A stretch of DNA of 50,622 nucleotides from Nitrospiraceae bacterium (GCA_012517735.1 JAAYUK010000082.1:1-50622), one strand, 5' to 3'; shown: positions 5,735 to 38,372, numbered from the stretch's first letter. The notes: generated by a model from the sequence alone, not told the origin. Numbers and translations: made by a program.

Positions 5735-5887
5735 CATCTCCAAAGCCTTGATTCATGCGAGTGTTTACTCTTTCAGTCTTTTTAGTGCAACTTTCAGATG
5801 CACTAGCTGATTTTTCGTGCCGCCGAATAAATGGCTTAAAATAAGGATTTGCTAAAAGCCACGCTCTTTTTTTACATGCTACTTTTT

Positions 5888-5911
5888 GTTGCTTATGCAA
5901 CTTAATATTGC
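5888..5911. promoter_or_regulatory. Double palindrome GTTGC-N4-GCAAC / GCAAC-N5-ATTGC, putative operator
   Basis: GTTGCTTATGCAAC (5888-5901) overlaps GCAACTTAATATTGC (5897-5911). The second matches GCAACTTAATGTTGC at 10336-10350 in 14 of 15 bases, and a third relative lies at 10401-10415. The shared motif suggests one regulator acts on the TauE operon and on the gntR/sigma-54 activator region. Confidence 0.4.
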
Positions 5912-6016
5912 GCTCAAAAAACACACTCCTTTTTCTCCTGTGACCAATCTTAGCACAGAAGGGGAGTGCATTCGGCATCATATTTTTTTATACGGGAATA
6001 AGCGAAAACAGCCACT

Positions 6017-32397: not shown

Positions 32398-33117
32398 TTA
32401 TGAGGATTTCCAGCGGTCAAACTCGGGGGGAAGCAGCGCAAGAAGCTTTTTTGGCTGCATGCTGAAAAGATCGTATGTCATGTCGAGCTGATTGACCACA
32501 TCAACAAAGCGACGCAGCGCCCCGGCCGTTTTCCCCCGCCCTGCTCCCGTCTTCGGACGGCTGTGGCGCACATCATAGTACAATTCAGTCGCAACATTGA
32601 TGATCACAGGGTTGGTGATAAAGCCCTGTCTCCCCGCAAGCTCATGATGGAACGAATTCTCGTGAGGAAGTGCTGAACAGAGCAGCAGCGCCGCATCCAT
32701 TCCGTACAAATGGTAAACCTGATAGGCGCCTTCCAGCAAGTGACGATGACGATACCGGTAGCCGCTGCTCAGGATATGGCGATAGTCCATGCCGGGCCGC
32801 CGCGTCCGGTCGCTTCCCGGCGGACATACCTGATCAAAAAACCAGAGCGAAAGCCAGCTCCAGAGTCCGGTATTGCCCGCTATGAGGTGATAAGGCGTAT
32901 CCCCGAACACATCGGCCATGTACTCGCAAAAATCGATGCGGAACCTGAATTTTCTTTGCTCGATTTCCAGGGGAACGGGGAACGCAGCGCTCTGTCTCTC
33001 ATCGAAGAGAATATCCCGCGGCAGCGATCCGGTTTGACCGCTGCGGAGCTGATTCAGATAGGTTCGAAATGCCTCGATCCCTGCGGTGTTCAGCATCCGG
33101 ATCTGATGAACGGTCAT
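32398..33117 (-). CDS. Protein of unknown function, third gene of GHKL-ATPase operon
   Basis: 239 aa, soluble, without signal peptide. Conserved-looking features are the N-terminal RMLNTAGIEAFRTYL, the aromatic/basic SGYRYRHRHLLEGAYQVYHL (about 118-137), and a C-terminal FVDVVNQLDMTYDLFSM...LLALLPPEFDRW. I recall a similar C-terminus in the uncharacterised DUF6339 family, but cannot check. The HRH and several Asp/Glu residues could be catalytic, yet no standard nuclease motif is clear. The ATG overlaps the stop of the preceding 254-aa gene by 4 nt, so the three genes are translated together. Confidence 0.85.
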   Translation of the reverse strand: MTVHQIRMLNTAGIEAFRTYLNQLRSGQTGSLPRDILFDERQSAAFPVPLEIEQRKFRFRIDFCEYMADVFGDTPYHLIAGNTGLWSWLSLWFFDQVCPPGSDRTRRPGMDYRHILSSGYRYRHRHLLEGAYQVYHLYGMDAALLLCSALPHENSFHHELAGRQGFITNPVIINVATELYYDVRHSRPKTGAGRGKTAGALRRFVDVVNQLDMTYDLFSMQPKKLLALLPPEFDRWKSS

Positions 33118-33878
33118 TTCTCCTCCCCCGCACTGCCGCCGAACCGGTCACAGACCCGCCATTTCCGGCAAAAAGCAAGGACAGCGTTGCCGATCCAGAA
33201 CTCCTTGTCCTGTTCGGTGGTCAAAACAGTGCGCGCAGGCAGCGGGCTTACGCCCGGAAGATCTTCAACAAAACGAATCCAGTGGCTCTGCCAATCATCC
33301 GGATCGCACTCGTCATCATCATAGTTTTCCCTAATGAGAATGTGCCTGAGTATCTGCCGGACAATCTCCGGATAGACCAGCGAAAAGAAATGCGTGTCGC
33401 TCCGGACGATCTCCCGGATTCCTTCAATCGCCGCATTCACCTGCAATATCGGCCTCGCGTCCGAAAGATCGAGCTGCCATACCAGATCACCCAATTCGAC
33501 GAATTCGACCGGAAGCAGACAGAGCCGGTCATGTGGCTCTGCAACATCGAGCCGCGGCACGATCCGGTCCACAGACGCAATGATGCGACCGTCAAGGACC
33601 ACTTTGACCCGGAAAAGCGGGATACCGCCCGGCGACAACTGTTCAAGAACGGTCCTGTCCGGTGCTGTCGGATTGCCGGCGCAGCCGTACGGAAAACGCA
33701 TCAGCGATGCGCCGCGATATGCCTCCACAAACACTTCGGCTTCGGGGGGCAAATGCAGTCCCTTCAGGCTCAATGAGGCCTCGAACGAAAAGCTCCCCGC
33801 TCCGACTCCGGAGAGCTGAAAAGAGACGGCTGAACGTGGAATCTTCCGGCGTCCCGTGTAATTGAATTTTCGTATCAT
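33114..33878 (-). CDS. Protein of unknown function, second gene of GHKL-ATPase operon
   Basis: 254 aa, soluble, not recognised. The N-terminal half looks all-beta: MIRKFNYTGRRKIPRSAVSF, FEASLSLKGLHLPPEAEVFVEAYRG and a glycine-rich turn FPYGCAGNP. The C-terminal half is helical with an acidic patch (YDDDECDPDDW, about 200-210) and an aromatic stretch. The order beta-sandwich-like then helical suggests an adaptor or sensor rather than an enzyme, but this is inference. It overlaps both neighbours by 4 nt (ATGA). Confidence 0.82.
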   Translation of the reverse strand: MIRKFNYTGRRKIPRSAVSFQLSGVGAGSFSFEASLSLKGLHLPPEAEVFVEAYRGASLMRFPYGCAGNPTAPDRTVLEQLSPGGIPLFRVKVVLDGRIIASVDRIVPRLDVAEPHDRLCLLPVEFVELGDLVWQLDLSDARPILQVNAAIEGIREIVRSDTHFFSLVYPEIVRQILRHILIRENYDDDECDPDDWQSHWIRFVEDLPGVSPLPARTVLTTEQDKEFWIGNAVLAFCRKWRVCDRFGGSAGEEK

Positions 33879-35785
33879 GGAACCAACGCCTCAATGAGGT
33901 CTGCGCGAACGATGATATCCCGGTTCGGATCAAAACCGGTCAGTTCAAGTGAAAAAGCTTCAGCGGCAGCTTCGGCGTAAATCCGGTTGCGGACGACTCT
34001 GTGAATCCTGACGTTCCGGGGCTTGATGGCGAGCGGCGGCTTGTCGAGTTCGAAATCAAGCGGGCTGTATCTGGCAAAGGGATCCCCGCGGCGGATGAGA
34101 TAGGCGGCAGAGAGCATAAAATAACGGGTCGGCAGCGGTCGGGTTCTGTCGCCGGAGACCCGGAAACCGGTCTTCACCGGCACAACAAGCAGATAGCGCC
34201 CCTGTCCATACCCGGCAGCGTCCATGGCATCCGAACCGCCTTGTCCTTCCCTTCCTTTCTTCTGCCCACCTTCCGGGGCCGACGGCTGGGCGGGTACCGT
34301 GACAAAAAACAGATCCCGGAGCAGAGACTCGTCCTTGCCCTTCGGGGGCGCCGACAGAATGCGCACCAGTTCCCGCGGGCTGTTCTTGACAAAGCGCAAT
34401 GCGGAAGCGCCCCGGACATATTTACCGCGGAACTTCGGGGAACGTTCCTGCCACTCCGTATGCGCCGGATTTTCGGCATCCCCGAGCATGGCGGACAACA
34501 CAGGATCATCGACAACGACCAGAGCCCTGACCCCCTTGGTCCGGAGCGACTTCACGCCTGCTATGGTGATGCCGTCACGGACGAAATGATCTTCGGGCTG
34601 CTCCAGGCTCTCATCACGTTGCAGATATACGGAAAAGGAGGCCTCCTGGCCGCCATGATGCGGCCGCTGGACTTTCATCGGCACGCGGACGGCAATCGGT
34701 TGGCCGGCTTCAAATGCCGCACGCGTTGCCGCAAGACGTTCCTCCGGAACGAGGGACTCGTCCCATTCAGCGGCGCGAGCCGGATTCGGCGGACGGAGAA
34801 CAACATGATCTTCGCGGTTCAGACCGTGGACCCATTGCGACATCGCAAGCAGGGCCCGCAGTCTCTTCTTGTTCATGTGAGTCTGCTCGATTTCAAGCTG
34901 TTCAAGGAGCGAATCAACGGTATCGCGTGAAATGATCCTGGGCTTGAGGTCCCCCTGGATCACCTCAACAGCAAGGGTTCCCCCGACAATCGGGAAGAAA
35001 TAATGGATAAGCACCGAAGCAATCAGTCGGAGCGCCGTGATGGACGGATCCGGATACGGCACGACGACCGAAAGTCCGGGTTTTTCGGCGCGATCAACCG
35101 AAAAGTCGGCACAAAACCTCCGCAGGGTGTCGGCGTCTTGCACCGGCAGTGCAAAATCGCCCTCAAACAGACCGTACCATCCATAAGGATAGTATTTGCG
35201 TCCGTTGAGCACATGCGTCTTCAGGGTAGCCTGTCCCATGAGCAGCCGACTGCCGTCGCTGCGGCGGGTGCTTATGCCAAGAAAAGCGTTCATCCGCGAT
35301 GCTGCCTGATATACCGTCTTGCCGAGACCCCATCTGCCCCGATCGCTTTCCGTCTTGCCGGAGCGGCCGACGTTTCTCCAGAAATAGAAGAAGTCGTTTT
35401 TGGCACCGTACCGCTCAAGATCGCTGTCGACACGAAAGTCGCCCTCAAGCCCCCGTGTCCCAAAGTCCTCGATGACCAGGTAAGGCATGGGATCATGCAG
35501 CGACGGCTGAAACGACAGTCCGTTCTGTTCGGCGGCCAAATGCGGGGAAAGCGATGCAAAATAGCGCTCAAAGAGCGATGCATTGCCATGGCTACGGCCG
35601 ACGATACGAAAGCGCACGGTCACCGTTTCGCCGGGCACTGCCGCATCGAGCGAATTTTGAATGACTTCACGCACAAGGGCATCGGTGATACTGTCAAGAT
35701 GATCAGTGGTGAAAAATTCGCCCGCAATCGGATCAGCATTCATCTCACCGCGGGACATCACCCTGAATTTCCAGTACGGAGTCAT
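33875..35785 (-). CDS. GHKL/Hsp90-fold ATPase (HATPase_c_3 / MORC-MutL-like), first gene of a three-gene operon
   Basis: 636 aa. The N-terminal GHKL ATPase has E40 and N44 in REVIQNSLDAA (N-box), D107-x-G109-x2-G112 (G1, IEDFGTRGLEGD) and a GRWGLGKTVY box (G150-K156), so ATP binding and hydrolysis look intact. The region after about 220 (PGLSVVVPYPD, IHYFFPIVGGTLAVEV) could be an S5-like fold. The rest is unassigned, with a long Gly/Lys-rich linker (about 505-530). Related GHKL ATPases occur in bacterial R-M and defence loci. A sigma-70 promoter lies just upstream. It is divergent from the DUF1998 helicase gene. Confidence 0.88.
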   Translation of the reverse strand: MTPYWKFRVMSRGEMNADPIAGEFFTTDHLDSITDALVREVIQNSLDAAVPGETVTVRFRIVGRSHGNASLFERYFASLSPHLAAEQNGLSFQPSLHDPMPYLVIEDFGTRGLEGDFRVDSDLERYGAKNDFFYFWRNVGRSGKTESDRGRWGLGKTVYQAASRMNAFLGISTRRSDGSRLLMGQATLKTHVLNGRKYYPYGWYGLFEGDFALPVQDADTLRRFCADFSVDRAEKPGLSVVVPYPDPSITALRLIASVLIHYFFPIVGGTLAVEVIQGDLKPRIISRDTVDSLLEQLEIEQTHMNKKRLRALLAMSQWVHGLNREDHVVLRPPNPARAAEWDESLVPEERLAATRAAFEAGQPIAVRVPMKVQRPHHGGQEASFSVYLQRDESLEQPEDHFVRDGITIAGVKSLRTKGVRALVVVDDPVLSAMLGDAENPAHTEWQERSPKFRGKYVRGASALRFVKNSPRELVRILSAPPKGKDESLLRDLFFVTVPAQPSAPEGGQKKGREGQGGSDAMDAAGYGQGRYLLVVPVKTGFRVSGDRTRPLPTRYFMLSAAYLIRRGDPFARYSPLDFELDKPPLAIKPRNVRIHRVVRNRIYAEAAAEAFSLELTGFDPNRDIIVRADLIEALVP

Positions 35786-35793
35786 GATCCTCT

Positions 35794-35822
35794 ATTAAAG
35801 CTGTTTTCGCAAATGCTGTAAA
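35794..35822 (-). promoter_or_regulatory. Sigma-70 promoter of the GHKL operon
   Basis: -35 TTTACA (35822-35817), 17-nt spacer, -10 TTTAAT (35799-35794); 5/6 matches in each box. The -10 box is 8 nt from the ATG at 35785. Confidence 0.6.
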
Positions 35823-35988
35823 GAGTTGCACAGGCGAAAAAGCTTGGAGCTCTCGATGGTCACCGTGAACGCACCTGTCCCAAAATTTCGTCTCAGTGAG
35901 CATCAAAGCCCCTGTGGTCGCTCAAGATTGTCTTTGGATCACCCAGACCGTCTCCCGTTGCGAAAAATGGTATCAGAACCCAATCGCC

Positions 35989-36018
35989 TTACCCTTGCGG
36001 CTGCGTGTACGGTATACT
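35989..36018 (+). promoter_or_regulatory. Promoter of the DUF1998 helicase gene
   Basis: -10 TATACT (36013-36018) with a weak TTACCC (35989-35994) 18 nt upstream, 16 nt from the ATG at 36035. Confidence 0.4.
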
Positions 36019-36034
36019 TTCTCAAGAGACTTGT

Positions 36035-38326
36035 ATGCCCTTTCCTGAAGACACTATCCTCCATACTCTGATCGAAGCACTGAAAGCCGATCGCCTGACC
36101 GGACCCGGCATCACTGCGCATGAATTCATCCCGCCGCGCGAGGCGGTGTATGAAGATATGGTACTGCATCCGCAGATTGCTGAAGCGCTCAAAGCTCAGG
36201 GGATCGAAAAGTTCTACCGGCATCAGGCGGAGGCAATCGACCACATCCGCTGCGGCGAGCATGTCGTGGTCATGACGCCGACCGCAAGCGGCAAGAGCCT
36301 GATCTATAACATTCCGGTCATCGAAACCATCCTCCAGAATCCTGAAGCAAAAGCACTCTACATCTTCCCGCTCAAAGGGCTCGAGCAGGACCAGCTCCGA
36401 GCGCTGAACGGCCTCTTCGACGCGGTACTGGGGCCGGTTGCCAAAGTGGGGCGCAAAGAACCATTGCAGCGAGCCGAGGTGTATGATGGCGATACGAAAC
36501 CCTATCGGCGCTCGCGGATACGGGAGGAAATGCCGAACGTCATCTTCACGAATCCCGACATGCTCCACCACGCCATCAACCCGTTTCATAAAAAATGGGA
36601 ACCGTTTTTCAGAAACCTGAAGTATATCGTTATTGACGAAGTGCACGCCTATCGCGGCGTCTTCGGCTCGCATGTCAGCCATGTCATCCGGCGTCTTCGG
36701 CGCATCTGCACCTGCTGGGGAGCAACGCCGCTTTTCATCGCCTGTTCCGCAACCATCGCCAACCCGAAAGAATTCACCGAAACACTTATCGGCAAATCGT
36801 TTGTGGTCGTCGACCAGACCGGCGCGCCGCAGTCGGGCAAACACTTCCTCTGCATCAGCCCGATCGACAGCCCTTACTCGGAAGCCACGCGCATATTCAC
36901 CCAATGCATAAAAGCCGGCCTGCGGACCATCGTCTTTACCAAAGCACGGAAGATAACCGAGCTGATCTACACTTGGACAGTCCAGCGAGCACCGTTGATT
37001 GCCGACCGGATCAGCCCGTACCGCGCCGGATTTCTGCCGTCAGAGCGCCGCGAGATCGAACAGAAACTCTTCAGCGGTGAACTGATGGGCGTCATCTCGA
37101 CCAGCGCGCTTGAGCTTGGCGTGGACATCGGCGGGCTCGACGTCTGCATCCTCTGCGGCTATCCCGGTTCCATCGCAAGCATGTGGCAGCGCGCCGGACG
37201 AGTGGGACGCGGAGACCGCGAATCGCTCGTCGTAATGATTGCGTTGAAAGACGCTCTTGACCATTATCTGGTATCGCACCCCGAAATGCTCTTCTCCAAG
37301 CCGCATGAGTCTGCCTCGTGCGATCCCGGCAATGAACGCATCCTCAAGCAACACCTCGTCTGCGCCGCCGGTGAACAGTGGCTCACCATTGATGATCCGG
37401 TCTACAGCGGCTACATCGGCGAGCCGGTTTTCGACGAACTGATCGCAGAACGGGCGCTGGTGGCCGGCAGGCGGGGAGACATCTGGTTTTCGGGCATCAG
37501 AAATCCGCAGAATACCGTCGGCATCCGCAGCGTCGGCAGGCCGCTCCGCATCTACGACGAACGCGGCCAACTGATCGGCGAACTCGACGGCCGTCGTATC
37601 TACCGCGACGGCTTCCCCGGCGCCATTTACCTGCACCGTGGCAGACAGTATCGTATTACACGCCTCAATATCGAAGATAACGAGTCCTCCTGCAAGGAAG
37701 TCAATGTTGAGTACTACACGCAGGCACTCTCCAATGAACATGCCGAGGTAGTCGATGTCCTCGCACAATTTCCGTCGCTGCTCAGTAAAGATGTCAGCAT
37801 CATGCACGGGAAAGTAAGAATCACCTATCAGGTTGTGGGGTATGATAAAAAACACCTTTATCACGGCACCAGGCTCGAACGTCTCAGTGTTGACATGCCT
37901 GAATATGTATTTGAAACCGAGGGTATCTGGATGACGATCAACCGCGGGCTCGGAGAGGAGATAGTCGAACGCGGATTCGACCTTGCGGGCACGCTCCACG
38001 CTGCCGAGCATGTGACGATCAATGCCATTCCCCTCTTCGCCCTCTGCGACAAGGGAGACATCGGAGGCATCAGCTATCCGCTCTACCCTGAGATGAAGTC
38101 TCCAGCAATTTTCATTTACGACGGCTACGACGGCGGCATCGGCCTTACCAAACGGGTGCTCGACGTGCCGCGCGAATGGATATCGGCCGCCATAGAACTG
38201 CTGCGCACCTGCGACTGCGACGACGGCTGCCCCTCCTGTGTGCAGGACGCCCAGTGCGGCTCCGGCAACGACCCGCTCGACAAAAAAGGGGCCATCTGGT
38301 TTCTCGAAAAACTGCTGGAGACGTGA
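36035..38326 (+). CDS. DEAD/DEAH helicase with C-terminal DUF1998, MrfA/Hrq1-like
   Basis: 763 aa from the ATG at 36035 (MPFPEDTILHTLIEAL); the GTG at 36005 precedes the -10 box. Superfamily 2 motifs are TPTASGKSL (I), VIDEVHAYRG (II), ACSATIANP (III), and QRAGRVGRGDR (VI), with TRLERLSVDMPEY in the accessory region. The C-terminal DUF1998 domain holds a four-Cys cluster CDCDDGCPSCVQDAQC (about 730-745), as in Bacillus MrfA (YprA), which repairs mitomycin adducts, and yeast Hrq1. It may be a housekeeping repair gene or work with the divergent GHKL operon. An inverted-repeat element and a gene remnant follow. Confidence 0.92.
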   Translation: MPFPEDTILHTLIEALKADRLTGPGITAHEFIPPREAVYEDMVLHPQIAEALKAQGIEKFYRHQAEAIDHIRCGEHVVVMTPTASGKSLIYNIPVIETILQNPEAKALYIFPLKGLEQDQLRALNGLFDAVLGPVAKVGRKEPLQRAEVYDGDTKPYRRSRIREEMPNVIFTNPDMLHHAINPFHKKWEPFFRNLKYIVIDEVHAYRGVFGSHVSHVIRRLRRICTCWGATPLFIACSATIANPKEFTETLIGKSFVVVDQTGAPQSGKHFLCISPIDSPYSEATRIFTQCIKAGLRTIVFTKARKITELIYTWTVQRAPLIADRISPYRAGFLPSERREIEQKLFSGELMGVISTSALELGVDIGGLDVCILCGYPGSIASMWQRAGRVGRGDRESLVVMIALKDALDHYLVSHPEMLFSKPHESASCDPGNERILKQHLVCAAGEQWLTIDDPVYSGYIGEPVFDELIAERALVAGRRGDIWFSGIRNPQNTVGIRSVGRPLRIYDERGQLIGELDGRRIYRDGFPGAIYLHRGRQYRITRLNIEDNESSCKEVNVEYYTQALSNEHAEVVDVLAQFPSLLSKDVSIMHGKVRITYQVVGYDKKHLYHGTRLERLSVDMPEYVFETEGIWMTINRGLGEEIVERGFDLAGTLHAAEHVTINAIPLFALCDKGDIGGISYPLYPEMKSPAIFIYDGYDGGIGLTKRVLDVPREWISAAIELLRTCDCDDGCPSCVQDAQCGSGNDPLDKKGAIWFLEKLLET

Positions 38327-38372
38327 GACAAGTCGGCGGATGACAAGACATGACCTTACCCTCAAATACTCA

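What the first reader, a model, noticed from the sequence alone, without database searches (positions are those of the whole stretch)
32398..38326. Three-gene operon led by a GHKL ATPase, divergent from a DUF1998 helicase: candidate undescribed defence or DNA-maintenance system
The 636-aa ATPase (intact E40/N44, DxGxxG and GxxGxGK boxes), a 254-aa beta/helical protein and a 239-aa unknown overlap by 4 nt at each junction, so they are made together. Their promoter is one side of a 250-nt divergent region whose other side drives an MrfA/Hrq1-like DUF1998 helicase. GHKL ATPases of the MutL/MORC type recur in bacterial restriction and defence loci, and DUF1998 helicases in DISARM-like systems. The region is bordered by repeat elements and a gene remnant, as accessory islands are. 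Neither small partner has a recognised domain.
Basis: partly seen in the sequence, partly recalled or inferred. Interest (0 to 1): 0.8.

Follow-up and report, generated by a model that had tools for sequence, protein, structure and literature searches.

The report
Methylase-free relative of PDC-M33 module
The three overlapping genes are a real, widely shared module built around a MutL/MORC-type ATPase that usually sits beside cytosine restriction-modification genes in other bacteria; it is a distant relative of an already catalogued but untested phage-defence candidate (PDC-M33), the neighbouring helicase is unrelated to it, and what is odd is that no DNA methylase of five families searched was found in this bacterium.

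Summary
Observation confirmed: three genes (636, 254, 239 aa) overlap by 4 nt, with intact GHKL ATP-binding motifs, divergent from an MrfA/TIGR03817 helicase. Interpretation half right. The ATPase has the invariant ExxxH motif that Iyer et al. 2008 gave as diagnostic of paraMORC2, a family from restriction-modification operons. PADLOC already lists a three-gene candidate of this layout, PDC-M33: the first gene matches it (profile-profile E 9e-40), the third is a remote DUF6339/PDC-M33C homologue (91%, E 1e-6), the second cannot be tied to it. In 54 related loci from many phyla the trio is kept in order in 49; at least 25 have a C5-cytosine methylase nearby, 17 Vsr, 9 an EcoRII-type nuclease. 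The helicase is not a partner: it is a widespread gene in the family, and in the sister species it sits on another contig, beside a type IIG restriction island. Genuinely interesting: the window's well-supported clade of seven lacks C5-methylase genome-wide, and the window's genome lacks five DNA-methylase families and Vsr, yet all three genes are under purifying selection. Best reading: an R-M-type antiphage ATPase complex that in this lineage works without a methylation mark. Anti-phage function remains untested.

The parts
33875..35785 (-). gene A: GHKL ATPase, 636 aa, paraMORC2-type, distant match to PADLOC PDC-M33A
35642..35671 (-). GHKL motif I of A (REVIQNSLDA, residues 39-48; E40 and N44 invariant in 50 homologues)
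35450..35467 (-). DxGxxG motif of A (residues 107-112)
35318..35338 (-). GxxGxGK motif of A (residues 150-156)
34451..34486 (-). LGDAENPAHTEW (residues 434-445): ExxxH motif, E438 and H442 invariant
33114..33878 (-). gene B: 254 aa, predicted Ig/FN3-like beta-sandwich (about residues 8-112) plus helical C-terminal part
32398..33117 (-). gene C: 239 aa, mostly helical, remote homologue of DUF6339/PDC-M33C, no fold match found in PDB
36035..38326 (+). divergent MrfA-like (TIGR03817/MZB) helicase: neighbour, judged NOT part of the system

Best explanation
Genes A-B-C encode a three-protein complex of the restriction-modification-associated GHKL class (paraMORC2-like ATPase A, Ig-like/helical adaptor B, DUF6339-like protein C), a divergent sister lineage of the PADLOC candidate PDC-M33, that most likely restricts invading DNA. 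Proposed mechanism: A dimerises on ATP and closes on DNA as MutL and MORC do (inferred from the fold class); B and C bind A and help recognise the target or deliver the cut (inferred from near-obligate linkage); the invariant D-x-E-x3-H cluster of A is the best candidate for a catalytic or metal site (speculation). In about half of the relatives a linked C5-methylase could mark self DNA; in the clade of this window no C5-methylase was found in the genome, so here the complex must tell self from foreign by something other than 5-methylcytosine. Shown: the trio, its order, its R-M linkage elsewhere, its conservation, the lack of detected methylases. Inferred: complex formation, DNA clamping, restriction. 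Not shown: any anti-phage effect.
For: Trio in order in 49 of 54 loci, A-B junction <=20 nt or overlapping in 46 and B-C in 45 of 49. C5-methylase within about 7.5 kb in 25 of 54 (26 with the G277 contig), Vsr 17, EcoRII-C nuclease 9; a rough chance expectation is about 0.2% per locus. In 19 of the 25 there is a methylase plus the ATPase module without an EcoRII-type nuclease, so ABC could itself be the restriction part (other nucleases were not ruled out). Distant relatives lie beside AIPR, dcm, Vsr, AlwI, MutH/Sau3AI, HNH and type II nucleases, many on plasmids. All 50 A homologues hit PDC-M33A; A vs M33A set E 9e-40; C vs M33C set 91%, E 1.1e-6, mismatched controls under 1%. Purifying selection dN/dS 0.10-0.19. 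Sporadic: 2 of the 31 genomes of the family searched.
Against: No phage assay exists. At this locus and in this genome no C5-methylase, Vsr, PF01555, PF02384, PF07669 or PF02086 was found, so the R-M context that supports the function is missing exactly here. B is not demonstrably related to PDC-M33B. A few Planctomycetota carry A alone. No nuclease signature was found in A, B or C.
Confidence: 0.62

Rival explanations
1. ABC is a repair or DNA-maintenance complex, MutL-like, that serves the repair of 5-methylcytosine deamination alongside Vsr or HhH-GPD glycosylases, rather than a restriction device.
For: Vsr in 17 and HhH-GPD glycosylase in up to 4 of 54 loci; A is in the MutL/MORC ATPase superfamily; five planctomycete loci hold A alone.
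Against: The window genome has no detected C5-methylase and no Vsr, so there should be no 5mC to repair; type II nucleases of several families and AIPR also recur; distribution is sporadic, and relatives are often plasmid-borne.
Confidence: 0.14
2. ABC is the left-over restriction part of an R-M system whose methylase was lost, now without function.
For: No C5-methylase found in the host genome while about half of the relatives have one linked.
Against: All ATP motifs intact; dN/dS 0.10-0.19 in all three genes between two species with dS above 1.3; seven members of one clade from several phyla are all without C5-methylase.
Confidence: 0.05
3. ABC and the divergent MrfA-like helicase form one four-gene defence system.
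For: Shared 249-nt divergent region; SF2 helicases do sit near a few relatives (L045, L046, L058).
Against: In the sister species the 82-85% identical helicase is on contig C27 and ABC on C2; DNA homology breaks cleanly between 35808 and 36007; the helicase is found near full length in 16 of 40 relatives while ABC is only in 2 of the family's genomes; neighbour clustering at the other ABC loci gave no recurrent MrfA-like helicase.
Confidence: 0.03
4. ABC is a DNA-silencing or compaction device in the manner of eukaryotic MORCs (no cutting; it traps foreign DNA and stops its expression), helped by but not dependent on methylation.
For: No nuclease signature found in A, B or C; MORC-1 of C. elegans entraps and compacts DNA (abstract of PMC8277788); would work in principle without a methylase, as this lineage needs.
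Against: Nothing direct; linkage to restriction nucleases is equally expected for a restriction helper.
Confidence: 0.16

Closest known systems
PDC-M33 (PADLOC-DB 2.0.0 'phage defence candidate', models PDC-M33A, B, C)
   Same: Three genes in the same order and of like size; A homologous over 411 columns (E 9e-40), C homologous over its length to the M33C/DUF6339 set (91%); relatives near dcm, Vsr and type II nucleases.
   Different: B and C do not hit the M33B/M33C models and B is not demonstrably homologous; A of the window hits the model only over residues 1-306 (59 bits); no methylase of the families searched was found in the window's genome.
paraMORC2 family (Iyer, Abhiman and Aravind 2008, PMC2292703)
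   Same: GHKL ATPase with the diagnostic ExxxH motif, invariant in 50 homologues; R-M neighbourhoods with cytosine methylases, Vsr, AIPR.
   Different: The text does not describe B and C as a fixed trio (its figures are not held); the window's own locus lacks the R-M genes.
VcSduA, Shedu with GHKL domain (formerly paraMORC3, PMC12137116)
   Same: A prokaryotic GHKL ATPase shown by experiment to need its ATPase residue for anti-phage action.
   Different: Nuclease domain (DUF4263) fused in one protein; no B or C.
Response_reg_2 / HEF_HK loci (PMC8011034)
   Same: GHKL proteins next to C5-methylase and Vsr; two of our Bacteroidota loci (L025, L029) carry an HK-like GHKL protein plus a response-regulator-like protein directly before A.
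   Different: Different GHKL family; the ABC proteins are not named in the passages I read.

Membership tests
paraMORC2 | GHKL ATP-binding motifs intact | tested here: met
   E40, N44, D107xGxxG, GxxGxGK present; nearly all invariant over 50 sequences
paraMORC2 | conserved ExxxH in the C-terminal part of the S5 domain | tested here: met
   E438 and H442 invariant in 50 sequences; aligned with the same motif in the PDC-M33A set; definition. That it lies in an S5 domain was not tested
paraMORC2 | S5-fold domain after the GHKL domain | not tested
paraMORC2 | restriction-modification neighbourhood | tested here: inconclusive
   met for about half of the ABC loci, not at the window's locus or genome
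PDC-M33 | gene A matches PDC-M33A | tested here: met
   7.4e-17 for the window, 50 of 50 homologues, hhalign E 9e-40
PDC-M33 | gene B matches PDC-M33B | tested here: not met
   no hit for the window or any of 46 homologues; hhalign P 0.005, probability 7.5%
PDC-M33 | gene C is a DUF6339/PDC-M33C protein | tested here: inconclusive
   no hit to the model, no DUF6339 hit among 47 homologues, but hhalign 91%, E 1.1e-6 over 223 columns
PDC-M33 | same gene order, genes touching | tested here: met
Type II restriction-modification system | cognate DNA methylase present | tested here: not met
   PF00145, PF01555, PF02384, PF07669, PF02086 not found in the window's genome; other methylase families not searched, MAG
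DISARM | DUF1998/MZB protein and helicase as operon partners | tested here: not met
   the helicase is a separate, widespread gene, unlinked in the sister species
MORC proper | GhXhhpXXRhl motif in S5 domain | not tested
   -

The most novel reading that the evidence does not exclude
In this clade the GHKL complex is a self-sufficient defence that recognises foreign DNA without any methylation mark (for example by topology, ends or replication state), showing that 'R-M-associated' MORC-type ATPases can act as stand-alone immune clamps, with a helical DUF6339-like subunit for which no known fold was found.
Probability: 0.28. Interest if true: 0.72.

Novelty: new variant of a known kind. Interest (0 to 1): 0.46.

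Why it matters
Bacterial MORC/paraMORC ATPases were predicted in 2008 to work in restriction but, so far as the literature held here shows, this family (PDC-M33 and this trio included) remains untested. A compact three-gene version that is under selection in genomes without a detectable methylase separates the ATPase complex from methylation, and so makes it possible to test directly what these ATPases recognise and do to DNA, with bearing on how eukaryotic MORC proteins silence DNA.

Tried and rejected
Sequence search of A, B, C against solved structures: nothing. Foldseek and VIA-align for C against PDB: no match, and none against viral models; absence is weak evidence. B: Ig/FN3-like sandwich only, Z up to 9.0 against unrelated glycosidases, no functional hint; its helical half was barely tested. 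Viral contigs: no relative of A. An HD-domain neighbour looked shared between G001 (L008) and L018, but they are only 35% identical over 55 residues and were not found at the other clade members, so not counted. Helicase as partner: rejected. 'PDC-M33', 'DUF6339' and 'paraMORC2' searched in papers: only the 2008 paper for the last, nothing for the others; AIPR plus GHKL gave the same paper. Steps that failed for file names, a frame, or a plasmid row that may not be folded: the row was dropped. The ORF caller picks antisense frames in GC-rich loci (L018, L020-L022), so their neighbours were read with codon-position GC.

Full report
What is there. The window holds three minus-strand genes that overlap by 4 nt at each junction: A 33875-35785 (636 aa), B 33114-33878 (254 aa), C 32398-33117 (239 aa). 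A has intact GHKL motifs (E40, N44, DxGxxG at 107-112, GxxGxGK at 150-156). A 249-nt gap separates A from a divergent helicase (ATG 36035, end 38326) of the MrfA/TIGR03817 type. Pfam and NCBIfam know none of A, B, C. PADLOC hits A with PDC-M33A (7e-17, residues 1-306).

The trio is real and widespread. The genus-mate genome G001 has all three at 68-71% identity. A scan of one genome per species found 57 loci. After removing duplicates, fragments and distant forms, and adding loci from other searches, 54 loci remain besides the window; 49 hold A, B and C in that order, nearly always touching (46 and 45 of 49 junctions at 20 nt or less or overlapping). They span Nitrospirota, Planctomycetota, Bacteroidota, Pseudomonadota, Acidobacteriota, Verrucomicrobiota and others. 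Five planctomycete loci have A without recognisable B and C.

What the neighbours say. Clustering of neighbouring ORFs gave a C5-cytosine methylase in 25 of the 54 loci, Vsr in 17, an EcoRII-type nuclease in 9 (Pfam EcoRII-C in the two tested) and HhH-GPD glycosylases in up to 4. The G277 contig adds a methylase and Vsr that the ORF clustering missed. From the copy number I estimate that a random place would have such a methylase this near in about 0.2% of cases (my estimate). In 19 of 25 methylase-linked loci no EcoRII-type nuclease was seen, so the trio may itself be the restriction part; I did not exclude every nuclease family. Other single associations: SIR2-STAND, TIR, weak GmrSD_N, an HK-like GHKL protein with a response-regulator-like protein.

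What A is. E438 and H442 in LGDAENPAHTEW are invariant in 50 homologues. Iyer et al. [quoted passage not shown] AIPR is named in their operon figure legend. I could not test the S5 fold.

What the trio is. Distant relatives on a phage contig (L016), in G261 (L011) and on an Enterococcus plasmid (L015) carry A with partners that hit PADLOC's PDC-M33B and, in L011 and L016, PDC-M33C. Annotated plasmid relatives end in a DUF6339 protein, next to dcm, Vsr, AlwI, MutH/Sau3AI or other nucleases. Profile-profile comparison with these: A, probability 100%, E 9e-40 over 411 columns with ExxxH aligned to ExxxH; C, 91%, E 1.1e-6 over 223 columns; B, only P 0.005; mismatched pairs all under 1% probability. 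So the trio is a divergent sister of PDC-M33, not a plain member: B fails the M33B test.

Structures. C: pLDDT 95, mostly helical, no PDB match. B: pLDDT 89, residues about 8-112 an Ig/FN3-like sandwich, then helices. Neither shows a nuclease.

The helicase is not a partner. It is found near full length in 16 of 40 relatives, at 52-85% identity outside its own genome, while the trio is in 2 of the 31 genomes of the family searched. In G001 the helicase is on contig C27, the trio on C2. Nucleotide homology between the two species covers window 32407-35808 (trio plus 23 nt) and, separately, 36007-38328 (helicase), and breaks between them. In G001 the slot beside the helicase is filled by a type IIG restriction enzyme-methylase (full-length match, E 9e-295), an HKD-Snf2 helicase, a MNT/HepT pair and a YhcG nuclease. 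So the helicase flank can take up defence genes: a single but telling case.

The odd point. In the tree of A the window lies in a clade of seven (100/98) with G001 and L018-L022. No PF00145 match was found in any of the seven genomes, whereas 25 of the 48 other loci have a linked methylase. Flanks of L020-L022 are short, so the genome-wide search is what carries this point. In the window's own genome (rated 100% complete) PF01555, PF02384, PF07669, PF02086 and Vsr were not found either; G405 and G406 (L021, L022) also lack all five methylase families. These are MAGs, and methylases of other families were not searched. Yet A, B and C are under purifying selection between window and G001 (dN/dS 0.13, 0.19, 0.11; dS similar to the core helicase), so this is not a decaying remnant. 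The like dS fits inheritance from the genus ancestor with relocation.

Mechanism, by status. Shown by sequence: trio, order, motifs, linkage elsewhere, conservation, no detected methylase here. Inferred from family knowledge: ATP-driven dimer closure on DNA, complex with B and C, restriction of foreign DNA. Speculation: D436/E438/H442 as an active or metal site; recognition by topology, ends or replication state in the methylase-free clade.

Verdict. The methylase-free clade is the part worth a bench test.

Noticed in passing
L094:281-9870 (G001 contig C27): Beside the helicase orthologue of the sister species lies a restriction island: type IIG enzyme, HKD-Snf2 helicase, MNT/HepT pair, YhcG nuclease, Bro-N protein; the helicase flank may be a defence hotspot.
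   Followed up: partly
window:38369-38523: Near-perfect 19-nt inverted repeat (TTTTTCAGCAGCCTG core) 117 nt apart, just after the helicase, none expected by chance; inside the region of a truncated lysA-like gene.
   Followed up: partly
window:38355-39005: Only the C-terminal part of a diaminopimelate/ornithine decarboxylase-like gene remains.
   Followed up: no
L047:8480-11938: A continues in frame from an N-terminal part with sigma-70 regions 2 and 4 (1152-aa open frame), possibly a natural fusion of a sigma-like factor to the GHKL ATPase.
   Followed up: no
L032, L033, L034, L035, L042: Planctomycete loci with A but no recognisable B or C next to it.
   Followed up: partly
L025:6652-9986, L029:6681-9985: An HK-like GHKL protein plus a response-regulator-like protein lie directly before A, after Vsr and C5-methylase; these look like the HEF_HK/Response_reg_2 pair of PMC8011034.
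   Followed up: partly
L106-L111, about 5745-5980: A small ORF of about 62-80 aa sits directly before the PDC-M33A-like gene in several plasmid loci (Priestia, Ligilactobacillus, Deinococcus, Arthrobacter, Planococcus, Paenarthrobacter); none was seen before A in the window.
   Followed up: no
L045:5610-9401, L046:6426-10124: HIT + PLD + SF2 helicase + S24-peptidase-like large protein near ABC in Pirellulaceae; the L045 copy is hit by PADLOC type IV restriction models.
   Followed up: partly
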